Source: Endozoicomonas montiporae CL-33
GTDB taxonomy: Bacteria > Pseudomonadota > Gammaproteobacteria > Pseudomonadales > Endozoicomonadaceae
Reading direction: 5' to 3'
Assembly (NCBI RefSeq): GCF_001583435.1
Contig: NZ_CP013251.1
Location: 2,439,617 to 2,503,616 of the forward strand
Length of the DNA stretch: 64,000 bases
Within the stretch, counting starts at the first letter, position 1. Each line of letters begins with the position of its first letter. The notes beneath the pieces were generated by a model that saw only the letters and a list, made by a program, of their open reading frames with translations, had not been told where the DNA came from and made no database searches. This document shows, piece by piece, positions 4,699-64,000 of this stretch. The translations under genes were made by a program, and so were the position numbers.

Positions 4699-5507
4699 TA
4701 TATAAGAGTAACTGTTGGTGTATATCGAAAGAAAAATGGTACCTTCGTTTATTGTGTGGAGTTCGTGCAAATTGTCTTTTTTTACACCAAAGTAAGACAC
4801 CTCACCTTCACTTAGCCACATGTCTTTAGTTTTTTGAATAACCACTTTTGATAGATTGGGTAATGAAATAATATCGAAGTTCAGGCTTCTTAGTTGGCCT
4901 TTAACAATAACTATGACAGCATTGCTATTCAGATGATTATGAAGAACCATCTTGTCATTAGGCGGTATATAGAAAAAACCGGCAGCCACATGATCATTTT
5001 TAAGGCCGTCAAGACCAAAATCTGACAGGAACTCCTCACTCAATCCATTAAGGATTTTAGCGCAATATGGTTGGCTGTTAATTTTATTGTCAAGACTCTC
5101 CTTGTCATATTGTTCACATTGCGTAGTTTTTTTCAGATGCTCAAAATTCTTCACTACTGCTCTCATGTCTGGATGCCCAACAAGCCCACTGGACAGATGG
5201 GACAGTCCAGTCAGGTAACCGGTCTCCATATCAGGGTTAAGATTATACCCTGTAAAAAGCTGATCCATACCCTGCATGAAGCTTTCAGGTGTTACTTCCC
5301 CAAAGTTGTAAGCAAACACTGAATTACTCAGTAGCAACAGGCAGGATAGCTTCCATTTCTTGATATTCATATCAATTGCTCTTTAGTTACTGACATGATT
5401 CTCAGACTTTCACTGTGGTTGGATTTGGTTACCCAGTAAAGGAGAATGACTTTTCGAGCTTCTGAGAAAGTATACTTTTATGGCCTTTTGTCAAATTCGT
5501 AGCAGCT

Positions 5508-49405: not shown

Positions 49406-50452
49406 TCAGGTTGTTACTTTTTCAGCTGCATTTTGTTTGTCGCGGCTTCGGCTTCGGCTGCGTCTGCGGCTTCTTCTTGGAGTCATTTCGCCAGTGTCGT
49501 TGTCAGACGAACTTCCCTCTGCGTCCGTAGCTGTCTGTTTTGTTTCCAGTGCAGGCTCGGATGCAGATTTGCTGCTGTCGTTCAAATCCGCATTGTCGCT
49601 ACCGGCAATCTTGAGTAGCAACTTGTTGTTGTCTGTCATGACCTGTGCTTTGCAGAACAAGCGGTCGCCAACAAAGACGTCAGCGTCGATTGGGTTAAAC
49701 AGTGGTATGATGTCGCCCGCTTTGATTGAGAGCGCTTTTCTTAATGTGGTTTCCTGTTGACCCAGTTTGGCAGTCATTGGAATTGAAACGTCCAGCATTC
49801 GATGCTCAAGTTGTTGTTTCATTTCCTTGCGATTCACAATCGCTTTGGTATCGCCCATTTTGGTCAGGCTGTTTGCCGGGAACAGTAGCTGAACAGAACC
49901 GGAAATGTCGCCGATGGAGATAATAAAATAAATGCAGACGACAAAATCCATCGCAGAACGGTCAAGCTGTTCTGCGGCAGCGTCCTCTGACTTGTTAGTC
50001 ATCCGGAATTTGACGGGATTGATGGACTCAAAGGACTCTTCAAAACTTCTGAATAAGCCTTGCATCAGCTTATAAGCCATGCGTCTGTCGCCCATGCTCG
50101 GGGCAACGTTTTGTGTTTTATCAGGATATTCGCCGTTGCCTCCACACATCAGGTCGAGACAGGCGGTGATGATGCCTCTGTCGAGGGCAACAACAGAAAG
50201 GTCCATAGGGTCTTCATTATTGATGACCCAGGTGCGTAGAAAACAGTCGTCATGGTTGGCGTGCAAAATCATCTGCTCGACTTCAACCACCGGCATTACG
50301 CTAATTTCTGCATTTAGGGTATGACTGAGCATAATCTGGAACTTATTGGCGCATTGCTCGGCAATTTTTTCCAGAAATGTTGTCAGACCATGAACAATAT
50401 TACCTGCAAGGTACAGGTTGAATGGCTCATAGGAATCGTCTTCTTGTGTCAT
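49406..50452 (-). CDS. fliM: divergent flagellar switch protein FliM
   Basis: C-ring protein linking FliG and FliN. ATG 50452 gives 348 residues; a TTG at 50533 would add 27. The middle domain is recognisable (LDLMCGGNGEYPD for the usual GGDG loop, MAYKLMQGLFRSFEESFESINPVKF) and so is the SpoA domain (MTAKLGQQETTLRKALSIKAGDIIPL). With either start the CheY-P-binding N-terminal peptide of the LSQxEIDALL type is absent. The C-terminus has a long acidic then basic Ser/Arg-rich tail (PRRSRRRSRSRSRDKQ). First gene of the leftward block. Confidence 0.88.
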   Translation of the reverse strand: MTQEDDSYEPFNLYLAGNIVHGLTTFLEKIAEQCANKFQIMLSHTLNAEISVMPVVEVEQMILHANHDDCFLRTWVINNEDPMDLSVVALDRGIITACLDLMCGGNGEYPDKTQNVAPSMGDRRMAYKLMQGLFRSFEESFESINPVKFRMTNKSEDAAAEQLDRSAMDFVVCIYFIISIGDISGSVQLLFPANSLTKMGDTKAIVNRKEMKQQLEHRMLDVSIPMTAKLGQQETTLRKALSIKAGDIIPLFNPIDADVFVGDRLFCKAQVMTDNNKLLLKIAGSDNADLNDSSKSASEPALETKQTATDAEGSSSDNDTGEMTPRRSRRRSRSRSRDKQNAAEKVTT

Positions 50453-50980
50453 AGTCGGGCTAGAAATTAGTTGGCGTAATACGGGAAGTTCAGGATTATA
50501 GACATCTGACGTTTGTTGGCTATATACGTACAAACCTCGTAAATTTATCGCTATTAAATAGATAAATATTCATAGTTGCGAAATTGATTGTTGTTGGTGC
50601 AGGCGAATGATTAATATTTGATTTGTGTTAGTAAAATGTAACCTATGTTATTGATAATGAACAAAATATATATTCTCCACTTATTAACTCCCGGTTTTCT
50701 GAATACTTATGCATGCAGACTTTTGGGTAATTAATGAATAGAATTGCTTCATTAGTGAATAATACGTATGTAGGTGGCGTGGTTGGTTTGTCATTATGTG
50801 GCGCCTGCACAGTACATCAGTGGTATTAACTTTCTATTAATATTTTGTCGTTGTCGTATTATTCGAATGATCCTTTTTGTTCTTTGTGCGGCGATGTGGC
50901 TTTAACATCTGTTGCTGTTTGTTAATCAGGCTGATGTTTCCTGATGGCAGGTTGTTGATTTAAAAATAATCGGGAATGGC
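50453..50980. other. divergent flagellar promoter region
   Basis: About 530 bp between fliM and motY, clearly AT-rich. It must drive both blocks. I searched by eye for sigma-54 (GG-N10-GC) and found no convincing site. The 50570-50760 part is especially AT-rich. Confidence 0.5.
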
Positions 50981-53490: not shown

Positions 53491-53832
53491 ATGCAGCCAA
53501 TACATAATTTTGCGGGTGTTGTTCAGCAGCGTATAACGCTTCCGGGGGCAACCGATGTACAAGATACCAGAATCATGCCTAATGACACCGGGCGTCTTCA
53601 GGACAATGCTAAGGTGCAGTTCTCAGAGGTTCTGGATGATGCGCTGCAACACGTCAGTAACCTTGAGCATGGCGCAGACCAGATGCGAACAGATTACGAG
53701 CTGGGTCTCGGTGATGACCTGGTAGGTGCAATGATTGCCAGTGAAAAAGCATCATTGTCTTTTCAGGCAGTGGTTCAGGTGCGTAACCGGGTAGTCTCTG
53801 CTTACGAAACCGTGTTTAACATGCCGGTGTAA
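53491..53832 (+). CDS. fliE: flagellar hook-basal body protein FliE
   Basis: Basal-body adaptor between MS ring and rod, exported early. The product has 113 residues. The C-terminal half has the family pattern KVQFSEVLDDALQHVSNLE, LVGAMIASEKASLSFQAVVQVRNRVVSAY. 18 bp before fliF. Confidence 0.93.
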   Translation: MQPIHNFAGVVQQRITLPGATDVQDTRIMPNDTGRLQDNAKVQFSEVLDDALQHVSNLEHGADQMRTDYELGLGDDLVGAMIASEKASLSFQAVVQVRNRVVSAYETVFNMPV

Positions 53833-53850: not shown

Positions 53851-55461
53851 GTGAGTGCATCGGTAAAAATGGACCCGACTGCGGCCATGCAGCGCATGCG
53901 AGAAGGGGTGTCGTACATTTCATCCAGGGCTGGCAAGGATTTTTCCGGCGTTGTTAAAAAAAATCCGGCACTGGTGGCAGTCAGTGTCGCGCTGTTGTTC
54001 AGTCTTCTGGTCGTCACCGGCTTGTGGCTGACCAGTGGTGATGATAGCGACAACTGGCGTCCGCTTTATGGTCGTCAGGAGCTTTATGATGTCGCTGCCG
54101 TGGTGGAAGCGTTGGACGCTGGTCGTCTGGATTATCGCTTGCATCCGACCAGTGGCCAGATTCTGGTGGCGGCTGATGAGTTGAATGCTGCCCGTATGCA
54201 TCTGGCGACAGCCGGTATCAAGCCTGCGGCCTCTGCAGGAATGGAATTGCTGACCAGTGGTGGTCAGCTGGGTCGCAGCCAGTTTGTTGAGCGTAAGCAG
54301 TATTTGAAGGGGCTTGAAGGTGAGCTGGAGCGAACCATCGCCAGCCTGCGCCCGGTGCGCACTGCCCGTGTGCATCTGGCTGTTCCCGAACGAACTGCCT
54401 TTTTGCGTGAGCAGGTCGAGCCTGCGGCTTCTGTTTATCTGGATCTGTATCCGGGTATTCGCATGGAAGGTCGTCAGGTGCAGGGCATTATCAACCTGCT
54501 GGCTGGCAGCTTCCCTGATCTTAAGCCTGAACGTATTCACGTTCTGGATCAGAACAGTAATCCTCTGACGGCGGATGAAAATGCGCCCAGCCAGACTGAT
54601 CAGCAGATGCAACATCGTCGTACGGTTGAACAGCAGTATGTTCAGCGCCTGACGCATTTGCTGGAACCTGTGGTGGGTGAAGGCAATTTACGGGTGGCGG
54701 TGAATGCCGACATCGATTTCAGTTTTGAAGAGAGCTCCCGTGAAGGGTATGACCCGGAGAATTCCGTGCTGCGCAGTGAAAGCTACAGCGGCAATACAGC
54801 CCCGCAGGGTGCAGGTGGTGTACCCGGTGCCGCTTCCAACGTAGAGAATCTGGATGAAGGTACTGGTACTGGCGATGAAAACAGTGACGTCAATGTCAGC
54901 AGTATCCGGAATTACGAAATGGGCCGGACGATGAGTTATCAGCGTCAGGATGCTTTCCGGATAGCCCGAATTAATGCCTCTGTCATTCTTAATAGCCGGA
55001 TCAATGGTGCTGAAGCCGATTTCACTCTGTCAGCCGTCGATGATCTGGTGCGCAATGCAGTGGGAATAGATCTTGATCGTGGTGACCGTATTACTGTACG
55101 TTCACTGCCGTTTTATGATAGCGGTGCTGCAGAAGACGATCCAATGTCTTCTATGGTGATGGCTGTGCGTGAGGGGGGTTCGATGATGCCGTTGATGATC
55201 GGTCTGCTGATTTTGTTTCTGATTCTGGTGGTTGTGGCGGTTATTTATTACAGCATACGTCTGCATCGTCAGCGCAATGAGCAGGCGGCGCTGGCTGCCG
55301 AGTTGGCATTGCTGGATGCCGGTGCCGGTAATGAAGAGTCTGAAGAAGACGCATTAAGCAAAGTGGATGCGACGGCGTCGGATCGTGTCAGGGATCTGGC
55401 AGTGTCCAGTCCGGATCAGATTGCAACCATTCTTGAACGCTGGATTAAGGAGGCGGACTGA
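53851..55461 (+). CDS. fliF: flagellar MS-ring protein FliF
   Basis: Membrane ring at the base of the motor. GTG start at 53851 with GGGGAGAACGAG before it; 536 residues. Two membrane helices, near 45-65 (ALVAVSVALLFSLLVVTGLW) and near 445-470 (LMIGLLILFLILVVVAVIYY), flank the periplasmic domains (ELNAARMHLATAGIK, RTIASLRPVRTARVHLAVPE). The C-terminal tail DRVRDLAVSSPDQIATILERWI is the FliG-binding end. Stop overlaps the fliG start by one base. Confidence 0.95.
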   Translation: MSASVKMDPTAAMQRMREGVSYISSRAGKDFSGVVKKNPALVAVSVALLFSLLVVTGLWLTSGDDSDNWRPLYGRQELYDVAAVVEALDAGRLDYRLHPTSGQILVAADELNAARMHLATAGIKPAASAGMELLTSGGQLGRSQFVERKQYLKGLEGELERTIASLRPVRTARVHLAVPERTAFLREQVEPAASVYLDLYPGIRMEGRQVQGIINLLAGSFPDLKPERIHVLDQNSNPLTADENAPSQTDQQMQHRRTVEQQYVQRLTHLLEPVVGEGNLRVAVNADIDFSFEESSREGYDPENSVLRSESYSGNTAPQGAGGVPGAASNVENLDEGTGTGDENSDVNVSSIRNYEMGRTMSYQRQDAFRIARINASVILNSRINGAEADFTLSAVDDLVRNAVGIDLDRGDRITVRSLPFYDSGAAEDDPMSSMVMAVREGGSMMPLMIGLLILFLILVVVAVIYYSIRLHRQRNEQAALAAELALLDAGAGNEESEEDALSKVDATASDRVRDLAVSSPDQIATILERWIKEAD

Positions 55462-56483
55462 TGAGTTCAGTAATGTCACCAGACGATAATTCTGCTGCTG
55501 TTAATCGCAGCAAGCTGGAACAGGCTGCGATTGTGATTCTCGGGTTGGGTGAAAAGGCGGCGGCACGAGTGCTGCGCCTGATGTCGGCAAAAAACGTTGC
55601 CCAGCTAATGCAGGTGATACCCAGGGTACACGGCGTTGTTGAAAGTGAACTGGAAACCATCATGGATTCCATGGCGACAGAATGTAACGATGCGCCTTTG
55701 TTCAGTGACAAGTCCGGCATTGATCAGGCATTGCGTAAAGTGCTTGGTGAAAAGCGTGCCCGCGATCTGCTGCAGTCCTCTCAGGGGGATCAGTTTGGCG
55801 AAGTGTTGGAAAAGCTGCTGATGCTTGATCCGAAACTGGTGGCCCGACTGATTGCCAATGAGCATCCGCAGTTGCAGGCGATTACCCTGGCTTGTATCGA
55901 GCCGGCCAAGAGTGCCCATATTATACAGAGCTTTTCTGAGCAGCGACAAAATGATCTGACCGAGCGGATGGCGAACCTCAGCTCGGTTCCTACCTCTTCC
56001 CTGGAAGCGATTGCCGGTTTGCTTGACAGTCTGACCCAGCAGGAAGTCAGCACTTATGCCGTTAATGGTGTCGGTCAGCTGGCAGAGGTGCTGAACCATA
56101 TGGATGCTGAATCCGGCGATGACCTGCTGGATAATCTGCGTACCAGAGATGGTGATCTGGCCGATCAGGTGGCCTCCCTGCGCTTTACCTTTGAACATGT
56201 GCTTGAGCTTGAGCTCGATTCCCTGCGTGTGGTGTGTGAAGCCGCTGAGAATGAAATGCTGTCCATCGCCCTGCGTGGTGTGGTGCCTGAGCGTCAGGAA
56301 CATGTTTACTCCTGTATGGGTAAACGTGCAGCAGCCATGCTTCGTGAAGAAGTGGAGTCCGGTGTCAGTATGCGAGCCAGTCGTGTCAACGAGGCGCGTG
56401 TTCAGCTGACTGCGCTGGCGCGTAAGCTGGCGCGTGAGGGGCAGATTGAACTGGTTTCTTCAGCCGATGAGCTGGTTGGGTGA
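55461..56483 (+). CDS. fliG: flagellar motor switch protein FliG, divergent torque helix
   Basis: Rotor protein that contacts the stator. The product has 340 residues. N-terminal FliF-binding domain, middle domain with the EHPQ motif (NEHPQLQAITLACI), ARM-C, and a C-terminal domain (FTFEHVLELELDSLRVVCEA, AAAMLREEVESG). By eye-alignment with E. coli FliG, the DDRSIQ stretch bearing key charged residues reads ELDSLR here, and the later Arg is Glu, so several torque residues differ. Overall fold pattern and position in fliEFGHI are secure. Confidence 0.92.
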   Translation: MSSVMSPDDNSAAVNRSKLEQAAIVILGLGEKAAARVLRLMSAKNVAQLMQVIPRVHGVVESELETIMDSMATECNDAPLFSDKSGIDQALRKVLGEKRARDLLQSSQGDQFGEVLEKLLMLDPKLVARLIANEHPQLQAITLACIEPAKSAHIIQSFSEQRQNDLTERMANLSSVPTSSLEAIAGLLDSLTQQEVSTYAVNGVGQLAEVLNHMDAESGDDLLDNLRTRDGDLADQVASLRFTFEHVLELELDSLRVVCEAAENEMLSIALRGVVPERQEHVYSCMGKRAAAMLREEVESGVSMRASRVNEARVQLTALARKLAREGQIELVSSADELVG

Positions 56484-56529: not shown

Positions 56530-58047
56530 GTGAACAGTAATGAGCAGGTCAGGCCATTTGCATTTCCCGGGCCCGGCAAAGGGCTGAAGCCGTCGGTAAA
56601 CATTGAACGCGCAGAGCCTGAGTTGCAGGTTATGGCAGGCCGGAGCCGACGAAGACAGAAGGATTCAGGCTGGAATGACGGTGATAAAGGGCGGCTACGT
56701 CAGTTTGTCACCAAACGACAACCGGAGCCTGATGAATCCGGTAATGTTGCCTTGCGCCCGGCGTTTGCAGTCGCTGTGGAAGGTGAAGGCGCTAAAGAAA
56801 ACCGTAAGCCGATGGCTCGTCTTCGACGGAAAGGATCTGAAGCGTTATCGGTTAGCGTCGAAAATGCGTCTGAGTCTGTTCCTGACGGCAAAGAGTCTTC
56901 AGAAGCTTTGTCTCAAAACGCCTCCGGTTCTGATCTTCAATCCGCCAGTGATGATGTTGAGTCGGTTGAGGAGTTGAGAGCGCCAGAAGCAAAGGAGGTT
57001 CCCCATCAGGCTGATGTGGATGAGGAGCCTGATGTTGAGGCGACTGTAGAAACAGACTCAACCGGGATTTCTGCTTCGAAGAATGAAACGCCTTCAGACC
57101 TTGCAGCTACAAATTCAGACATTGACCAGTCCACTGAAGTGGCCGGAAAAGCGGCACCTTCAGTGCCACCATCAACCGCTGCTGCCGCACTGCAGAAAGC
57201 GATGGACGACATGTTTCAGAAAGGTCTGGAGCAGGGGCGGCAGGAAGCGTTAAATGATCAGGCTAAAGTGGTTCATCAGCAGGCGTTCGATCAGGGTGTT
57301 GAATCGGGTCGTCAGACTGGCTACGAAGAAGGTCTGCAGCAGGGATTGTCGGCAGCGGCTGATGAACTGAGTCATCGGTTTGCCGGTATAGAAGCACTGA
57401 TTCATGAAATGGAAGAGCATCGTCGTTTGCTTTCCCGTCAGCAGGTGATGGGAGCAGCGCGATTGCTGGAAAGGCTGGTGATCGAGGTGGTGCGTACCGA
57501 GTTGCGACATTCACCGGAACAGATTCAGGCGGTGGTTGAAGAAGCGGTACACCTGCTTGACCGGACAGATCATGAATCTATTGCTCTGCGTGTGCATCCG
57601 GACGATGCGGCCTGGTTGCAGGGCTTTGTTCAAAACAGCAGTGAAGCCTTTGTTGTGCGCCCTGATCCGGCAATTACCCGGGGCGGCTGTCGAATTGAAG
57701 GACGTCTGGGGCATGTGGATGCGACGCTGGAAGAACGTCTGACCGATTGCATTGAACAGTTGCGTACCTGCTTGCTGGAAGATCCTCTTGAGGCGCCACC
57801 GGTTGATATTTCTCCGGTTTACGACCGTATTCAGCCAAAGAAAGAGGTGCATTCGGGTGCTCATTCAGTAGCTCATTCAAACGCTGTGACAGCATCATCA
57901 GGCAGGCTGAGCCCTGAGCCTGAATTGCCGTCGGCAGAATTGTCAGCAGTTGCACAAAGGCCTGCTGTACCAGCCAGCGATTCTTTCTTTGGTTCAGAGG
58001 CTTCCGGGCAGTCTGGGCTGGGTGCCTGGGGTGACCTTGGGCAGTAA
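56530..58047 (+). CDS. fliH: flagellar assembly protein FliH with long N-terminal extension
   Basis: Negative regulator and stator of the FliI ATPase. The product has 505 residues, about twice the usual 230-260. The core (about 215-410) is typical: helix with repeated GxxxG-type steps (KGLEQGRQEALNDQ, QGVESGRQTGYEEGLQQG) and the VirE2-like C-domain (LLERLVIEVVRTELRHSPEQ, IALRVHPDDAAWLQG). The first 200 residues are acidic, Ser/Glu/Ala-rich and low in complexity, and the last 90 are Ser/Pro-rich; both look disordered. GTG start at 56530. Confidence 0.88.
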   Translation: MNSNEQVRPFAFPGPGKGLKPSVNIERAEPELQVMAGRSRRRQKDSGWNDGDKGRLRQFVTKRQPEPDESGNVALRPAFAVAVEGEGAKENRKPMARLRRKGSEALSVSVENASESVPDGKESSEALSQNASGSDLQSASDDVESVEELRAPEAKEVPHQADVDEEPDVEATVETDSTGISASKNETPSDLAATNSDIDQSTEVAGKAAPSVPPSTAAAALQKAMDDMFQKGLEQGRQEALNDQAKVVHQQAFDQGVESGRQTGYEEGLQQGLSAAADELSHRFAGIEALIHEMEEHRRLLSRQQVMGAARLLERLVIEVVRTELRHSPEQIQAVVEEAVHLLDRTDHESIALRVHPDDAAWLQGFVQNSSEAFVVRPDPAITRGGCRIEGRLGHVDATLEERLTDCIEQLRTCLLEDPLEAPPVDISPVYDRIQPKKEVHSGAHSVAHSNAVTASSGRLSPEPELPSAELSAVAQRPAVPASDSFFGSEASGQSGLGAWGDLGQ

Positions 58048-58076
58048 TACTATTTTTTAGATAAATATCACCAATG

Positions 58077-58126
58077 CTTCTGATGCTGCTAAAAAGGCGG
58101 ATGTCGTATTGGTGATCTGGAGTGAT
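58077..58126. promoter_or_regulatory. inverted repeat upstream of parM-like gene
   Basis: ATCACCAAT (58077-58085) pairs with ATTGGTGAT (58118-58126) across 32 bases, directly before the ATG at 58129. It could sequester the start region in RNA or be an operator. No ribosome-binding site stronger than GGAG inside the right flank is seen. Confidence 0.5.
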
Positions 58127-58128
58127 CT

Positions 58129-59115
58129 ATGACCTCTCTGGTCGTTATTGATGAAGGTTCTGCCCAGGCAAAGGCAACGTATCGGGCTGAAAACGGCGCT
58201 ATTGTGACTCATGTTGTGCCATCCCGCGTAGCCGAGCAGGCCAAGGTGGATATCAATGGTTATTCCGGGTCTGCCTACTTCACCGAGGAAGGTGGCGAGT
58301 ACACGGTAAATGGCGATTTTGACGACATTATTCGTACAAACATCCCTTCCTACCAGACATCCGAGGCCAACCGTGCGCTGGTGCATGAAACACTGCGTCA
58401 GAGTGGCTTTGCCGGCCGTCCGGTGCGCGTGGCGGTCACCCTGCCAATGAATCAGTTTTTCTCAAAGGTGCAGGGTGCGCCTATCAATCAGAAGCTGATT
58501 GCCAACAAGAAGCGTAATGTGCTGGGCGGTATTAAATCGGCTGCAGGACATCAGCTGGCAGAAATTATCGACTGCAAGGTCTATCCGGAAGGTATTCCTG
58601 CCCTGTTTGATACCATTCGCAACGACGATGGCTCCCTTAAGCCCGGTTTCGAAGAAGGCATGAAAATTCTGGTGGTGGATATCGGCGGTACGACAACAGA
58701 CGTATCGGTCGTCACGCCTGATGGCACCATTGAGTCTTACGACAGCTTTAGTACAGGTGTCTTGACGGTGGTCGAGCGTTTTTCTGAACTGGCAGCCCCG
58801 GAATTTGGCCTGAAACGTATCCCTCGTGCGCTGGCTGAAGAAGCGGTTAAAACCGGTCGCCTGAAAAACATGAACGTTTCCGAACTGATTCAGCGTGCCA
58901 GCCGCAATGTGATGCAGACCATTTTGCGCGAGCTGGAAGCCATGGTGTCTACGCCTTCACTGCTGGACAAGATCCTGATGGTTGGCGGTGGTGCTGCGTT
59001 GATGGGTCGTGACCTTGCTGAAGCAATGGGTGTCGAGGTATTGATTCCCGAGCAGCCGGATATGGCCATTTCCCGTGGTATTTACAAGCTGGAAATGCTG
59101 AAGGCCAGAAGCTGA
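58129..59115 (+). CDS. ParM/StbA-family actin-like ATPase, orphan, in the flagellar operon
   Basis: The product has 328 residues, close to plasmid R1 ParM (320). Actin-fold motifs: phosphate 1 VVIDEGSAQAKATY (residues 4-17), VAVTLPMNQFFSKVQ near 103, phosphate 2 ILVVDIGGTTTDVSVV near 182-196, adenosine motif KILMVGGGAALMGRD near 281-295. ParM forms filaments that push plasmid copies apart with ParR and parC. Neither ParR nor iteron repeats are beside it. It lies between fliH and fliI on the same strand with similar codon use, so it may be a chromosomal cytoskeletal partner for the flagellum or the pole (inference). Confidence 0.85.
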   Translation: MTSLVVIDEGSAQAKATYRAENGAIVTHVVPSRVAEQAKVDINGYSGSAYFTEEGGEYTVNGDFDDIIRTNIPSYQTSEANRALVHETLRQSGFAGRPVRVAVTLPMNQFFSKVQGAPINQKLIANKKRNVLGGIKSAAGHQLAEIIDCKVYPEGIPALFDTIRNDDGSLKPGFEEGMKILVVDIGGTTTDVSVVTPDGTIESYDSFSTGVLTVVERFSELAAPEFGLKRIPRALAEEAVKTGRLKNMNVSELIQRASRNVMQTILRELEAMVSTPSLLDKILMVGGGAALMGRDLAEAMGVEVLIPEQPDMAISRGIYKLEMLKARS

Positions 59116-59131
59116 GGTTTCTGTAGACAAG

Positions 59132-59247
59132 GTAGGTTGGTGCGAGCGGTACACGATCTTCCTACACGGTTGGTCAATTTTCACCGCTGGTTCACAGGTT
59201 TTTATTTAGTCACCGTGTTGGGAGGCGCTTCGCTTGTCCCAACCTAC
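59132..59247. repeat. GTAGGTTGG inverted repeat, REP/BIME-like
   Basis: GTAGGTTGG (59132-59140) and CCAACCTAC (59239-59247) bracket a noncoding stretch with GCGAGCG and GCGCTTCGCTTG parts. This resembles the dispersed GTAGGTTGGG...GCGAAGC repeats of many gammaproteobacteria. It separates the parM-like gene from fliI. Confidence 0.65.
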
Positions 59248-59296
59248 ATTCCAAATGTGAAGCGTTGCCGGGTTCTTATCTCCAGGATAAACGACG

Positions 59297-60655
59297 ATGA
59301 AAGAAGCAAGTTTGTCAGACCGGCTACAGTCTGCAGGCAAAAAAATGCATGTGCCAGCCGGTAAGGTGTATGGCCGTTTGCAGCGCGTTAAAGGGTTGTG
59401 CCTTGAGGCTTCGGGCTGTCGTCTGAGTACCGGACAACGTTGTCTGATTGAACGACAGGATGGTTCTGCTCTAGAGGCAGAAGTAGTCGGCTTTGAAGGC
59501 GGTCGTCTGTTTTTGATGCCGCTGGAACAGCCCGCCAATCTCAGTAGTGGTGACTGGGTTCGGCCTATTCATACCGACACGCGCATACCGGTGGGTGAGA
59601 ATCTGCTGGGGCGGGTAATCGATGGAGTAGGGCGTCCGCTGGATGGTAAAGGTCCGCTGGATGCGGATGACAGTACCTCGCTGGAAGGTGAGTCGATTAA
59701 TCCGCTGAAGCGTCGCCCTATTGCTGAACCTCTGAATGTGGGTATTCGTGCCATTAACAGTCTGCTGACGGTGGGTAAAGGGCAGCGTCTGGGCCTGTTT
59801 GCGGGCAGTGGTGTTGGTAAGAGTGTTCTGCTGGGCATGATGACCCGTTATACCAGTGCCGAGATTACCGTGGTGGGTTTGGTCGGTGAGCGTGGCCGGG
59901 AGGTGCAGGAATTTATCGAGCACAGTCTTGGCAAAGAAGGTATGAAGCGTGCGGTTGTTATTGCTGCGCCTGCAGACAGCTCGCCGGTTATGCGACTGCG
60001 GGCGTCCAGATTGTGCCATCGTATTGCCGAATATTTTCGGGATCAGGGTCGGGATGTATTGCTGCTGATGGATTCTCTCACCCGTTTTGCCCAGGCGCAG
60101 CGGGAAGTGGCGCTGGCTGTTGGTGAACCGCCTGCAACAAAAGGTTATCCACCTTCGGTGTTCAGCCTGCTCCCGACACTGGTTGAGCGTGCCGGTAATG
60201 GTGAAAACGGTCAAGGTTCCATGACCGCATTTTATACGGTGTTGTCAGAAGGTGACGATCAGCAGGATCCAATAGCTGATTCGGCGCGAGCCATTCTGGA
60301 CGGGCACTTTGTGCTGAGTCGCGAGCTGGCTGAATCCGGCCATTACCCTGCCATTGACGTAGAACAGTCGATCAGCCGGGTGATGACGCAGGTGACCAGT
60401 GACGAGCATCAGAAACTGGCGCGACAGTTTCGCCAGACTCTGGCGCGTTATAACAAGAACAGTGAAATGGTCGCGTTGGGTGCCTACCGCAAGGGTACTG
60501 ATCCAATGATTGACCAGTCTATTCAGATGTATCCGGCGATGGCCGGATTGTTGCAGCAGGGCATTCATGAGGCAGCGGATTTTCAGCAATCGCTCGATAG
60601 TCTGCAAAATCTATGGCCGAATGTCCGGCGTGATACCCGCCCTGTTCAGTCATAG
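59297..60655 (+). CDS. fliI: flagellum-specific ATPase FliI
   Basis: Hexameric ATPase that loads export substrates. The product has 452 residues. Walker [17 protein letters not shown] near 168-183, [20 protein letters not shown] near 195, Walker [22 protein letters not shown] near 253, [20 protein letters not shown] near 316. AGGA nine bases before ATG 59297. fliJ, normally next, is not downstream here. Confidence 0.97.
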
Positions 60656-60670
60656 TACGTTGTCGCACTT

Positions 60671-60696
60671 TTGTAAAAACTCCTTGTAAAAACTCC
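60671..60696. repeat. two tandem copies of a 13-bp repeat
   Basis: TTGTAAAAACTCC at 60671-60683 and 60684-60696, just after fliI. Confidence 0.9.
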
Positions 60697-60716
60697 GGGT
60701 GCCCTCTTTTGTGGGC

Positions 60717-61262
60717 ATGACACGATTTGTCAATACCTTTGGAGGCTATCTGCGTGCCAAATACGGTGAAAAGGTCCACAAAATTTCCGTCAATGCTTCG
60801 TTCACCTGCCCAAACCGCGATGGCACAAAAGGTATTGGAGGCTGCACGTTCTGCAACAACGCTTCGTTCAGCCCTGATACGACCAATGCCGGAGACATCA
60901 CTGCCAGGATTCAATCTGCCAAAGATAAAGTACCTAAACGTACCGGAGCGGGAAAATTCATCGCTTACTTCCAGTCATACCGTAATACTTATACCAATTC
61001 CGTCTTCTAAACATGAATTGCGCAGCCATTCCAAACCGCTGGTTCGGCGTCAGAACTCCTCGCAATAGCCAGCTATTACTCGTCGTTCTTCCTTGCCCGG
61101 CGATTTGGATTGGCTTGCTCATGGTCATATTTAGAAAACGGAATTGGTATTACGGCTCTGTTGATGACCTGAGACGTTATTGTGACGAAGCATTGTCTGA
61201 TGCCGATGTCATTGGTCTGGCCGTTGGCACTCGTCCAGACTGTGTGCCGGATCCGGTTCTTG
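60717..61262 (+). pseudogene. radical SAM protein (YhcC/TIGR01212-like), MITE-disrupted and 3'-truncated
   Basis: ATG 60717 starts MTRFVNTFGGYLRAKYGEK, matching E. coli YhcC; the iron-sulfur Cys cluster is CPNRDGTKGIGGCTFC. The frame is cut at 60991 by a 158-bp MITE. After it the same protein resumes with YGSVDDLRRYCDEA and IGLAVGTRPDCVPDPVL. Deleting the MITE and one TTA restores QSYRNTYGSVDDLRRYC. Similarity stops at about 61262 and the last two-thirds of the gene are missing. A non-functional remnant. Confidence 0.88.
60992..61149. mobile_element. MITE of the TACCAATT family, 158 bp, TSD TTA
   Basis: Ends TACCAATTCCGTCTTCTAAA at left and, read inward from right, TACCAATTCCGTTTTCTAAA. Flanked by TTA at 60989-60991 and 61150-61152. 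Inner sequence is also partly palindromic (AGCCATTCCAAACCGC / GCGATTTGGATTGGCT). Inserted in the radical SAM gene. Confidence 0.9.
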
Positions 61263-61855
61263 CTTCTGATTTGCACCCGTTGCATCACACCCATTTGACA
61301 TGACCTCTAAAGTGGTCTTAAGTATACGCCGACTGACAAATATAACTGGGCAGAGTCTTCAGGTTTTCTGTTTCCTCTTATGGCCACGGCAATCTGGAAA
61401 ACGGTTCGAGGTATCAAAACCAGTGCAGCCAGGTTTTGATATCCATACGGTTAGTCGTCATTTCCGCTTTCGAGGCTGTCGCAAAAGACAAAAAAACAGG
61501 ATATACCCCTTACCGTGTCATGCCCACGCAGGTGGGGGATATCCTGAGAGGCTGTCCGGGAATAGTTTGGGGAATAGTTTGGGGAATAGTCTGCCCTGCC
61601 GGCAACTGCTCCTGCGTTTCCCTGGCTCCGGCACCCATGCCGTCGTGCGGTCGTAGCAAGTAGCAAATTAGTCTAAAAATCCACTTTTTTCGCTGAATAG
61701 CTTGCTATTCACCTCTCAAAACCGAATTTTTATCCTCAATTTTCTACGATCCTTGCTACGGGCACTATCCCCGGACAGCTTCCCGGGTTGCTCTGCGGCA
61801 GTCGACTTTACGGGAAGTGGGATGGTGTTTTTGTCCGGGACTTTGGAGAAAAGCA
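61263..61855. other. repeat-rich gap upstream of the WD40 gene
   Basis: Holds a hairpin ATCAAAACC/GGTTTTGAT (61413-61440), a REP-like inverted pair AGGATATACCCC/GGGGGATATCCT (about 61498-61544), and a 12-bp tandem repeat AATAGTTTGGGG (61561-61572, 61573-61584, then a partial). From about 61770 on, the sequence is repeated upstream of the second WD40 gene. No gene seen. Confidence 0.6.
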
Positions 61856-63352
61856 ATGAGTATTATTGAAAAGAGCTGGGCTATTGCGGGCCTGGTTATT
61901 TCACTGGCAGCCAGCTGTTTACAGGCGCAGGCTCAAACAACCCCCAACGCTCAACAGCCAACAGAAACGGCAATTCGATTTCTATTAGAGCATGTGATTC
62001 CTGTAGATCCGAATCGATTGCCAGAAACAGTCACATCAACCCCCGCGCCCGCAGGCAGTAGTGTCCTGATACAATCAATCCCCACGCTCAATGGCAGTAG
62101 TGTCCTGATACAATCAATCCCCACGCTCAATGGCAGTAGTGTCCTGATACAATCAACCTCCACTCCCACCCCCACCCCCACCCCCACGACAGGAAGCATC
62201 CCGACAAAACGTTATGATTGTGATCCTGACGTTCTTCCTGTCACTATGAGTATCTCATGGGGTAGGAAATATAGGGAAAATATCTTGGCTGTGGCAATAA
62301 GTTCCGGCGGTTTTATAGGATGTAAATCTTCTAATTTTGGTGTCGTTCAAATCTTTACTTTGGGGGGGAGAAGGGAACCCAAACTCGAACACACCGAACA
62401 TGTAAGTCAGTGGATCTATGGCGTTGACTTCAACAACGGCCAGCTGGCATTCGGGGGGCATAATAAGCAGATCAGCGTTCTCGACGACAGCTCGTTCGCC
62501 CACCTGAAAACCCTGAATACAACAATGAACATAGAGAGCGTTGTCTACAACCACGAAGGCACTCTTTTGGCCGCCGGAACGGATGACAGCGATAAAAATG
62601 AGGTCATAGTTTATAACGTGACGGACTCATACTCCATTCTGCACCGCTTGAGGAATAATAGGCGAGGCAGTGTAGGTGTTCTTGAGTTCAACAAAGACAG
62701 CACCGAGCTGGCATTTGCGGAGGATGGAAATGAAGTCTGGATTTATGACGCGACGACTACCGCATTTTTGCAAAAATTGGACGCTGAGTCAGCTACTGTA
62801 AATGACCTTGACTACAGTGACGACGGTAATTATCTGGCAGTTGTGGGGGGGGATCAAATTCTAAGGGTTTATTATAAAATGGAAAGCGACCCTTCGTTCT
62901 TTACCCTCACTCACGCCTTGTTAGTCGGTCACAAGTTAGCTTCCGTTGTTTTTAGTCCCGGTAGCACCTGGCTTGTAGTAGGGTTGTCTGATGGATCGGT
63001 CAGGTTTTATGATCCGGAGGATCTAACCATTCCTCCGCAGATCATCAGCCATAAGCAAGCCGTGGAAGGCCGTTTATATGACCTTCAATTCAGCGACAGC
63101 GGCACTATGCTGGCAGTCGCCAGAAATGATGGAATCAGTATTTATCGGATCGTCAGAAAAAACACTACAGACGTATATAATGATTTGGCTTCTACAACTC
63201 CGGAAGTATATGATTATTGGACTTCTACAACCCCGGAAGTACATGATTATTCGACTTCTACAACCCCGAAAGTACATAATGATTCGACTTCCACAACCCC
63301 GTTAGTCGCACTATTCATGGCTGTTCTTGGAGGAGGGATGCTGTTGCCATGA
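61856..63352 (+). CDS. secreted WD40-repeat protein
   Basis: ATG 61856 has GGAG about nine bases upstream and gives a signal peptide (MSIIEKSWAIAGLVISLAA to QAQAQ, about 26 residues). The product has 498 residues. A 13-residue repeat GSSVLIQSIPTLN occurs twice plus a partial third copy (39-bp DNA repeat from 62054), then a Thr-Pro run (TPTPTPTP). The centre (about 130-420) is a WD40-like beta-propeller: YGVDFNNGQLAFGGHNKQIS, NDLDYSDDGNYLAVVGGDQ, SVVFSPGSTWLVVGLSDGS, DLQFSDSGTMLAVARNDGIS. The tail has about four copies of STTPEVHDYST and ends in a short hydrophobic segment. Partner unknown; could act at the host interface. Confidence 0.75.
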   Translation: MSIIEKSWAIAGLVISLAASCLQAQAQTTPNAQQPTETAIRFLLEHVIPVDPNRLPETVTSTPAPAGSSVLIQSIPTLNGSSVLIQSIPTLNGSSVLIQSTSTPTPTPTPTTGSIPTKRYDCDPDVLPVTMSISWGRKYRENILAVAISSGGFIGCKSSNFGVVQIFTLGGRREPKLEHTEHVSQWIYGVDFNNGQLAFGGHNKQISVLDDSSFAHLKTLNTTMNIESVVYNHEGTLLAAGTDDSDKNEVIVYNVTDSYSILHRLRNNRRGSVGVLEFNKDSTELAFAEDGNEVWIYDATTTAFLQKLDAESATVNDLDYSDDGNYLAVVGGDQILRVYYKMESDPSFFTLTHALLVGHKLASVVFSPGSTWLVVGLSDGSVRFYDPEDLTIPPQIISHKQAVEGRLYDLQFSDSGTMLAVARNDGISIYRIVRKNTTDVYNDLASTTPEVYDYWTSTTPEVHDYSTSTTPKVHNDSTSTTPLVALFMAVLGGGMLLP

Positions 63353-63374
63353 TGTCGTTGTTGGGCTGGCGTTA

Positions 63375-63566
63375 TACCAATTTCGCCTTCTAAATATGAC
63401 CATGAGCAAGTCATTCAGAATCGCCGGACAATACTCTGAAGGGCATAAAGGCGAAACGACGAGTAATAGCGAGCTACTTGTGCCCTTTGGGTGTTGCGAG
63501 GAGTTCCAACGCAGCTCCCGTGATTCAGAATGGCTGCGTAATTCATGTTTAGAAGGTGAATTGGTA
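63375..63566. mobile_element. MITE of the TACCAATT family, 192 bp, TSD TTA
   Basis: Left end TACCAATTTCGCCTTCTAAA; right end read inward TACCAATTCACCTTCTAAAC. TTA at 63372-63374 and 63567-63569. The core CGACGAGTAATAGCGAGCTA is shared with the elements at 60992 and 39586. Between the two WD40 genes. Confidence 0.9.
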
Positions 63567-63573
63567 TTAGTCG

Positions 63574-63627
63574 TTCTGATTCTTCTGTGTTTTCTGATTC
63601 TTCTGTGTTTTCTGATTCTTCTGTGTT
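63574..63627. repeat. three tandem copies of an 18-bp repeat
   Basis: TTCTGATTCTTCTGTGTT at 63574-63591, 63592-63609 and 63610-63627, right after the MITE. Read on the minus strand it encodes repeating NTEESE, but there is no sign of a gene. Confidence 0.9.
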
Positions 63628-63743
63628 TGAGGGTGCCTCCGGATAAGGCAGACTATTCCCGGACAGCCTCCCGGGTTGCTTTGTGGCAGTCGACGTTACG
63701 GGAAGCGGGATGGTGTTTTTGTCCGAGGTTTTGGAGAAAAGCA

Positions 63744-64000
63744 ATGAGTAGTATTGAAAAGAGCTGGGCTATTGCGGGCCTGGTTATTCCACTGGTAGCA
63801 AGCTGTTTACAGGCGCAGGCTCAAACAGCTCCCAACGCTCAACAGCCAACAGAAACGACAATTCTATTAGAGTATGTGATTCCTATAGATCCGAACCGGT
63901 TGCCGGAAACAGTCACATCGACCCCCATGCCCACAGGCAGTAGCGTCCTGACGCAATCAACCCTCATCCCCACCACCACCCCCACCTCCACCTCCACCCC
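63744..64000 (+). CDS. second secreted WD40-type paralogue (3' end outside window)
   Basis: ATG 63744 with the same GGAGAAAAGCA leader as the first copy. The 85 visible codons give MSSIEKSWAIAGLVIPLVAS then CLQAQAQT, nearly identical to the 61856 protein, with the same IDPNRLPETVTSTP and one GSSVLTQS repeat before a Thr/Ser/Pro-rich run. Only one copy of the 13-residue repeat is seen here. The WD40 part, if present, lies beyond the window; that is inferred from the paralogue. Confidence 0.75.
   Translation, partial: MSSIEKSWAIAGLVIPLVASCLQAQAQTAPNAQQPTETTILLEYVIPIDPNRLPETVTSTPMPTGSSVLTQSTLIPTTTPTSTST

What the first reader, a model, noticed from the sequence alone, without database searches (positions are those of the whole stretch)
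58129..59115. Orphan ParM-like actin gene inside the fliE-F-G-H-I operon
Seen: all actin-fold nucleotide motifs of ParM/StbA, same strand and spacing as fliH and fliI. Known: ParM normally sits with parR and the parC centromere on plasmids. Here neither is present. A chromosomal filament former placed between the two FliH/FliI partners suggests a role in pole positioning, segregation of the flagellar pole, or export. I know of no described flagellar ParM.
Basis: partly seen in the sequence, partly recalled or inferred. Interest (0 to 1): 0.78.

Follow-up and report, generated by a model that had tools for sequence, protein, structure and literature searches.

The report
Actin gene built into flagellar operon
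Some marine symbiotic bacteria carry a gene for a ParM-type actin, a protein otherwise known for moving plasmids, fixed inside their flagellum-building operon next to an unusually tailed FliH protein, which hints that an actin filament may help build or place the flagellum.

Summary
In detail: an intact 328-codon ParM-family actin gene lies at 58129-59115, between fliH and fliI, on an Endozoicomonas chromosome, without a parR-type gene or parC-type repeats beside it. It is no one-strain accident: the order recurs in 4 of 94 genomes searched (own included; two genera), while fliH abuts fliI in all 17 parM-less operons opened. The flagellar-type copies form one clade (100/100). parM has the lowest dN of the six operon genes compared, with nearly saturated synonymous sites: old and under strong purifying selection. 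New clue: in these four operons, and in all 12 such FliH proteins found, FliH ends in a variable linker plus a near-invariant peptide, LGAW(G/D)xLGQ; 17 of 17 FliHs of parM-less operons lack it. I propose that FliH replaces ParR as the adaptor tying ParM filaments to the flagellar base, helping to place or count flagella; FlhF was not found in the family, yet a parM-bearing species has a single flagellum. Binding and function are inferred: an AlphaFold fusion test showed no docking, but its presumed positive control showed none either. Chromosomal ParMs are in print; I found no flagellar one in the held library.

The parts
58129..59115 (+). parM: ParM/StbA-family actin, 328 aa, flagellar clade
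56530..58047 (+). fliH: 505 aa, with a long variable N-terminal region, the FliH domain (residues 287-406) and a C-terminal extension
57748..58017 (+). FliH C-terminal linker (residues 407-496), variable: mean majority fraction 0.37 over 12 proteins for residues 407-495
58018..58044 (+). FliH C-terminal peptide LGAWGDLGQ (residues 497-505); 7 of its 9 residues are invariant in the 12 tail-bearing FliHs; proposed docking peptide
58067..58116 (+). RNA hairpin in the fliH-parM gap, just upstream of the parM ribosome-binding site (9-bp arms 58067-58075 and 58108-58116); a lead only
   Evidence: z -3.4; similar position but different sequence in G005 and G008; G010 not significant
59297..60655 (+). 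fliI: flagellar export ATPase
55461..56483 (+). fliG, same operon
53851..55461 (+). fliF, same operon
53491..53832 (+). fliE, same operon
59129..59250 (.). dispersed repeat with inverted ends in the parM-fliI gap of this strain (not part of the mechanism)

Best explanation
This is a domesticated ParM-family actin that has become a fixed part of the flagellar export operon in one lineage of Endozoicomonadaceae. Most likely it makes ATP-driven filaments and is tied to the base of the flagellum by FliH. FliH has gained the same layout as a ParR: a folded domain, a long flexible linker and a short conserved C-terminal peptide. FliH, which sits with FliI under the basal body, would thus take the place of ParR, and the nascent flagellum the place of the plasmid. 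The filament would then help place, count or pass on the single flagellum in cells in which FlhF was not found. Shown: family membership, conserved position, one clade, age and selection, the tail and its association with parM, and no FlhF by profile. Inferred: polymerisation, tail-ParM binding, and the role in placement or number.
For: fliH-parM-fliI order in 4 of 94 genomes searched, own included, two genera. fliH-fliI gap of -29 to 0 bp in 17 of 17 parM-less operons opened. One clade, 100/100. dN of parM 0.10-0.11 against 0.19-0.31 for fliI and 0.75-0.91 for fliH among G000, G008 and G010, with pS 0.61-0.70 in parM and 0.69-0.72 in fliI. The C-terminal LGAW(G/D)xLGQ is present in 12 of 12 FliHs of this group. 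Of these, 10 share their longest contig length with a flagellar-type ParM. The tail is absent in 17 of 17 FliHs of parM-less operons and in 7 of 7 further FliHs of unknown parM status. Its DNA pattern hits 4 of 94 genomes, exactly the parM-bearing ones, and 1 of 369 genomes drawn from the class, the own one. Linker majority fraction 0.37 against tail 0.92. No FlhF over cut-off in any of 37 family genomes, while E. lisbonensis, which carries this ParM, has a single flagellum by electron microscopy (PMC11883135, passages).
Against: An AlphaFold2 read-through fusion of FliH tail, linker and ParM left the tail unstructured (residues 1-50 pLDDT under 50). The control fusion of a phage-plasmid ParM with its presumed ParR left the ParR peptide at about 44-49 and the ParR domain itself at about 47-70, so the test says little. 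parM and the tail may have been gained once together, so their association may count as a single event. Flagellated relatives without parM also score without FlhF, so ParM is not needed for life without FlhF. A MinD-like protein 35% identical to a presumed FlhG exists in this genome. There are no polymerisation or motility data.
Confidence: 0.45

Rival explanations
1. ParM works in protein export rather than placement: filaments or ParM oligomers act as a scaffold that gathers FliH-FliI-substrate complexes or tunes the export ATPase, again through the FliH tail.
For: parM lies between the two soluble partners of the export ATPase and the new tail is on FliH itself; the order fliH-parM-fliI holds in 4 of 4 loci.
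Against: Nothing here separates export from placement; an actin filament is not needed for export in other flagella (general knowledge).
Confidence: 0.25
2. ParM is a flagellar-operon actin, but the FliH tail binds another partner (FlhA, FliN, FliM); the two merely share ancestry in one lineage.
For: Short aromatic motifs at FliH ends are known to bind FlhA/FliN (recalled, N-terminal in Salmonella). parM and tail may be a single joint gain (FliI tree). No docking in the fusion model.
Against: An FP motif near the N-terminus is kept in 12 of 12 tail-bearing FliHs and in 16 of 17 others (first 40 residues), so the tail looks like an addition, not a moved motif; its occurrence matches parM exactly in the 94 genomes searched.
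Confidence: 0.17
3. ParM no longer polymerises and acts as a nucleotide switch or regulator in the flagellar system.
For: Loss of ParR shows it has left the partition system; an acid in the first phosphate loop differs from R1 ParM (DEGS against DDGS).
Against: The predicted fold and the actin nucleotide motifs are intact, and DEGS is found in 36 of the 41 ParMs, including the phage-plasmid one.
Confidence: 0.1
4. The gene is a passenger (recent insertion, no flagellar role).
For: A related ParM sits on a phage-plasmid in one of the same hosts.
Against: Lowest dN of the operon genes in all 6 genome pairs, nearly saturated synonymous sites, kept in place across two genera.
Confidence: 0.03

Closest known systems
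R1 ParM (ParCMR, type II plasmid partition)
   Different: Here chromosomal, inside a flagellar operon, with no parR or parC beside it.
Chromosome-encoded ParMs (Dh-cParM1, Cb-cParM; PMC12270681, abstract, outline and passages read)
   Same: ParM genes on chromosomes, one of them conserved in five of six Desulfitobacterium species, role in the cell not known; some cassettes appear to lack a ParR.
   Different: Different sequence group (14% identity to Dh-cParM1). The words flagell and Endozoicomonas do not occur in its main text (supplements not read).
CorM/CorR of Anabaena (PDB 9rmi, title only)
   Different: 16% identity. None of the 10 papers listed of 141 matches was about it, so its role is not compared here.
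FlhF/FlhG polar flagellum number control (PMC7226244, start of abstract in the search listing only)
   Same: Sets site and number of flagella; the proposed role overlaps.
   Different: FlhF is an SRP-type GTPase; it was not found over cut-off in this family.
Phage-plasmid ParM of G005 (contig C3, P0033)
   Same: 36-39% identical ParM with the same DEGS motif.
   Different: Followed at once by a 152-aa ORF in the parR position and set on a contig with portal, tail-sheath and baseplate genes.

Membership tests
ParM/StbA actin family | Profile match over curated cut-off and near full-length homology to R1 ParM | tested here: met
   StbA_N 76.8 bits against cut-off 24.6; R1 ParM residues 2-286 of 320
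ParM/StbA actin family | Actin/ParM fold with nucleotide motifs | tested here: met
ParM/StbA actin family | ATP-driven filament formation | not testable with these tools
   Needs purified protein
ParCMR plasmid partition system | parR gene beside parM | tested here: not met
   Neighbours are fliH and fliI in 4 of 4 loci
ParCMR plasmid partition system | parC: direct repeats beside parM | tested here: not met
   No direct repeats in 58030-58140. In the other gap only inverted repeats were sought; it holds a repeat found across the genome
ParCMR plasmid partition system | On a plasmid | tested here: not met
   On the single 5.43-Mb contig; on 5.07-Mb, 550-kb and 296-kb contigs in relatives
Flagellar operon component (new) | Conserved place in flagellar operons beyond one strain | tested here: met
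   4 genomes, two genera
Flagellar operon component (new) | Needed for flagellum or motility | not testable with these tools
   Needs deletion strains
ParR-like adaptor role of FliH | C-terminal peptide binds ParM | tested here: inconclusive
   Fusion model negative; presumed positive-control fusion not docked with confidence either
FlhF/FlhG system | FlhF present | tested here: not met
   0 of 37 family genomes over cut-off, the 22 best candidates of each scored; own genome has only two SRP54-domain matches (77 of 77 candidates scored), which read by eye as FtsY and Ffh

The most novel reading that the evidence does not exclude
A cytomotive actin system devoted to the flagellum: ParM taken over from phage-plasmid partition, with FliH turned into its ParR by a gained C-terminal docking peptide, so that the flagellar base is moved or counted like a plasmid.
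Probability: 0.4. Interest if true: 0.92.

Novelty: new variant of a known kind. Interest (0 to 1): 0.8.

Why it matters
In the library searched I found no actin-family protein described as a dedicated part of a flagellar operon. If ParM acts there, it would point to a function for a chromosomal ParM, a kind described in 2025 without one (PMC12270681, abstract and passages). It would show how a plasmid or phage partition motor can be re-used to move a protein machine, and offer a FlhF-independent way to place or count flagella. The FliH tail makes this testable with a nine-codon deletion.

Tried and rejected
Passenger or recent transfer: rejected, because synonymous divergence in parM is close to that of its neighbours and dN is the lowest in all 6 genome pairs. 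ParM as a one-for-one substitute for FlhF: not supported, because parM-less flagellated relatives score without FlhF too. FliJ loss in this strain: rejected; fliJ is about 6.3 kb downstream of fliI. Tail as a chance or DNA-level element: rejected; codons differ synonymously between genomes while the peptide is kept, and the reversed control pattern gave 0 hits in 94 and in 369 genomes. Recent spread by viruses: no relative in the viral contigs with two queries. The genomic context of seven about-50%-identical ParMs (P0022-P0028, one from Endozoicomonas sp. ALC066), next to the flagellar clade in the tree, could not be reached. Of the 21 close ParM proteins (P0001-P0021), context was read directly for 4 (P0001, P0003, P0012, P0014; identity of sequence for the last three checked) and inferred from equal contig length for 6 more; 11 are unverified (P0008 is a shorter version of P0005 on the same contig and was left out of the tree). 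Attempts to give the fold job a FliH alignment failed because MAFFT laid FliH over ParM. Overlaps of fliH with fliI rest on longest-ORF starts and may be overstated. Paper searches for a flagellar ParM: 1 paper, unrelated by title; none; 10 of 11 listed, none on this by title and abstract start; 2 papers; Endozoicomonas flagella papers: (25 of 32 listed); ParR binding; Spongorhabdus: (none).

Full report
WHAT IS THERE. The window lies in a 5.43-Mb single-contig genome; its close relatives are named Endozoicomonas. Between fliH and fliI is an intact 328-codon gene, 58129-59115. It is a ParM-family actin by Pfam, PHROGs and comparison with solved structures. Its predicted fold is confident (most blocks of the ParM part above 90 pLDDT) and matches R1 ParM best. 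It is the only match at E <= 0.001 in the genome. FliE, FliF, FliG, FliH and FliI are confirmed by profile. No ORF of ParR kind fits in the gap on either side, and the fliH-parM gap has no direct repeats.

IT BELONGS TO THE OPERON. Among 94 genomes searched (own included), 14 had any match. Four matched at 84% or more: the own genome, G005 and G008 of the same genus and G010 of another genus. G008 and G010 have the contig lengths of Endozoicomonas sp. OPT23 and of 'Oceanospirillales bacterium XeTr1', whose ParM is labelled Spongorhabdus nitratireducens. In all four the order is fliH-parM-fliI. I opened 17 operons without parM (15 from 13 genomes of the same family, 2 from another family). In each, fliH touches or overlaps fliI (gap -29 to 0 bp on longest-ORF starts), which is the empty site. 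Other fliI matches were not opened.

AGE AND SELECTION. In pairwise comparisons of G000, G008 and G010, parM has dN 0.10-0.11, fliI 0.19-0.31, fliG 0.38-0.76, fliF 0.54-0.64, fliE 0.41-0.57 and fliH 0.75-0.91. Synonymous differences are 0.61-0.70 per site in parM, 0.62-0.64 in fliG and 0.69-0.72 in fliI. parM is thus about as old in the operon as its neighbours and the most constrained of the six; it is lowest in all 6 genome pairs (fliE was compared in 3). A tree of 43 ParMs puts the 20 flagellar-type rows on one side of a branch (100/100), with seven about-50% relatives next to them (99/97 for the joint branch); several outer rows have long branches and the root is for drawing only. In the FliI tree the four parM-bearing rows need two changes rather than one because G010 is unresolved; 22% of bootstrap trees have them as one group. 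A single gain is plausible but not shown.

THE FliH TAIL. FliH of the four parM-bearing operons is long (378-505 aa as called) and ends in the same peptide, LGAWGxLGQ, although FliH is only 29-35% identical in 5 of the 6 pairs. Two protein searches gave 12 FliHs of this kind (365-522 aa), and 12 of 12 end in LGAW(G/D)xLGQ. Seven further FliHs from the second search and 17 FliHs from parM-less operons (252-356 aa) lack it. The second search also returned 4 rows without a FliH domain, left out of this count. Over the 12 proteins the linker (407-495) has a mean majority fraction of 0.37, the FliH domain 0.66 and the last ten residues 0.92 with 7 invariant. A DNA pattern for the peptide plus stop hits 4 of 94 genomes, exactly the parM-bearing ones, once each at the end of fliH; it hits 1 of 369 genomes drawn from the class, the own one, which is the only genome of its family in that draw. 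The reversed control hits none. ParR proteins have this layout (DNA-binding fold, linker, C-terminal ParM-binding peptide; recalled, and 4a62 is titled ParM with the ParR C-terminal peptide). The presumed ParR of a phage-plasmid in G005 looks alike, with a different peptide.

TEST OF DOCKING. fliH and parM happen to share a frame here, so reading the stops as residues gives a tail-linker-ParM chain. AlphaFold2 left residues 1-50 below pLDDT 50; the tail scored no better than the linker. As a presumed positive control I folded the phage-plasmid ParM with its presumed ParR in the same way. The C-terminal ParR peptide reached only about 44-49, a little above its linker at 34-38, and the ParR domain itself only about 47-70. 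The method does not see the presumed true pair with confidence either, so the result neither supports nor excludes docking.

FLAGELLAR SETTING. FlhF is over its cut-off in 31 of 94 genomes but in 0 of the 37 of this family (the 22 best candidates of each genome scored); the two SRP54-domain matches of the own genome read by eye as FtsY and Ffh. For FlhG I used the gene beside flhF in G081: 13 genomes of other families match it at 56% or more, the own genome at 35% and the best of the family at 41% (57 genomes). Endozoicomonas lisbonensis, named for ParMs 97% identical to this one, is motile with a single flagellum by electron microscopy of its type strain (PMC11883135, passages). Some control of number other than FlhF must exist. 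ParM is a candidate in this lineage but cannot be the general answer, because relatives without parM score without FlhF too.

ORIGIN. DEGS, in place of DDGS of R1, is found in 36 of the 41 ParMs; those with a named source are Endozoicomonas or Spongorhabdus. One of these (P0033, 36%) corresponds to a gene on an 87-kb contig of G005 with portal, tail-sheath, baseplate and replication-initiation genes, that is, a phage-plasmid. A partition actin of such an element is a likely source. Plasmid records match at 35% or less in the 20 rows listed (stopped at 5000 records) and phage records at about 30% at best (17 records).

EXPRESSION DETAIL. The fliH-parM gap folds into a hairpin just upstream of the parM ribosome-binding site in the window (z -3.4), in G005 (z -2.9) and in G008 (z -2.6), with different sequences; G010 is not significant (z -0.4). 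This could set parM output apart from fliH; it is a lead only.

VERDICT. That the gene works in the flagellar system in some way I hold at about 0.85; that the FliH tail is its docking site at about 0.5; that the outcome is placement, number or inheritance of the flagellum rather than export at about 0.55 given a role. Chromosomal ParMs were reported in 2025 (PMC12270681: abstract, outline and passages read). Its main text does not contain the words flagell or Endozoicomonas, and my other searches of the held library found no flagellar ParM.

Noticed in passing
59129-59250: Dispersed repeat with inverted ends (gtaggttgg...ccaacctac) in the parM-fliI gap; 43 matching places in the genome, its own included, most about 40 bp and several as inverted pairs.
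   Followed up: partly
60656-64000: fliI and fliJ are about 6.3 kb apart in this strain (fliJ at G000:C1:2506569-2506994) but adjacent in the three parM-bearing relatives. Between them lie a broken radical-SAM gene (two pieces match TIGR01212), a WD40-type repeat protein at 61817-63352 and an ORF running off the window whose start resembles that of the WD40 protein.
   Followed up: partly
49406-50533: FliM carries an arginine-serine-rich C-terminal tail (TPRRSRRRSRSRSRDK) after its FliN-like domain.
   Followed up: no
L069, L089-L092 (G005 contig C3, 87,477 bases): Phage-plasmid with portal, tail sheath, baseplate, a replication-initiation protein and a ParM with a ParR-like ORF right behind it.
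   Followed up: partly
G000-G036: None of 37 genomes of the family has FlhF over the profile cut-off, although many have flagellar operons; how they set flagellar number is open.
   Followed up: partly
58048-58128 and L048, L049, L050: Hairpins of different sequence at the same place upstream of parM in three of four genomes.
   Followed up: partly
P0022-P0028: About-50% ParMs next to the flagellar clade, including one of Endozoicomonas sp. ALC066, of unknown genomic context.
   Followed up: partly
G016 and G022: Two flagellar-type fliEFGHI operons in one genome, in two separate FliI lineages.
   Followed up: no
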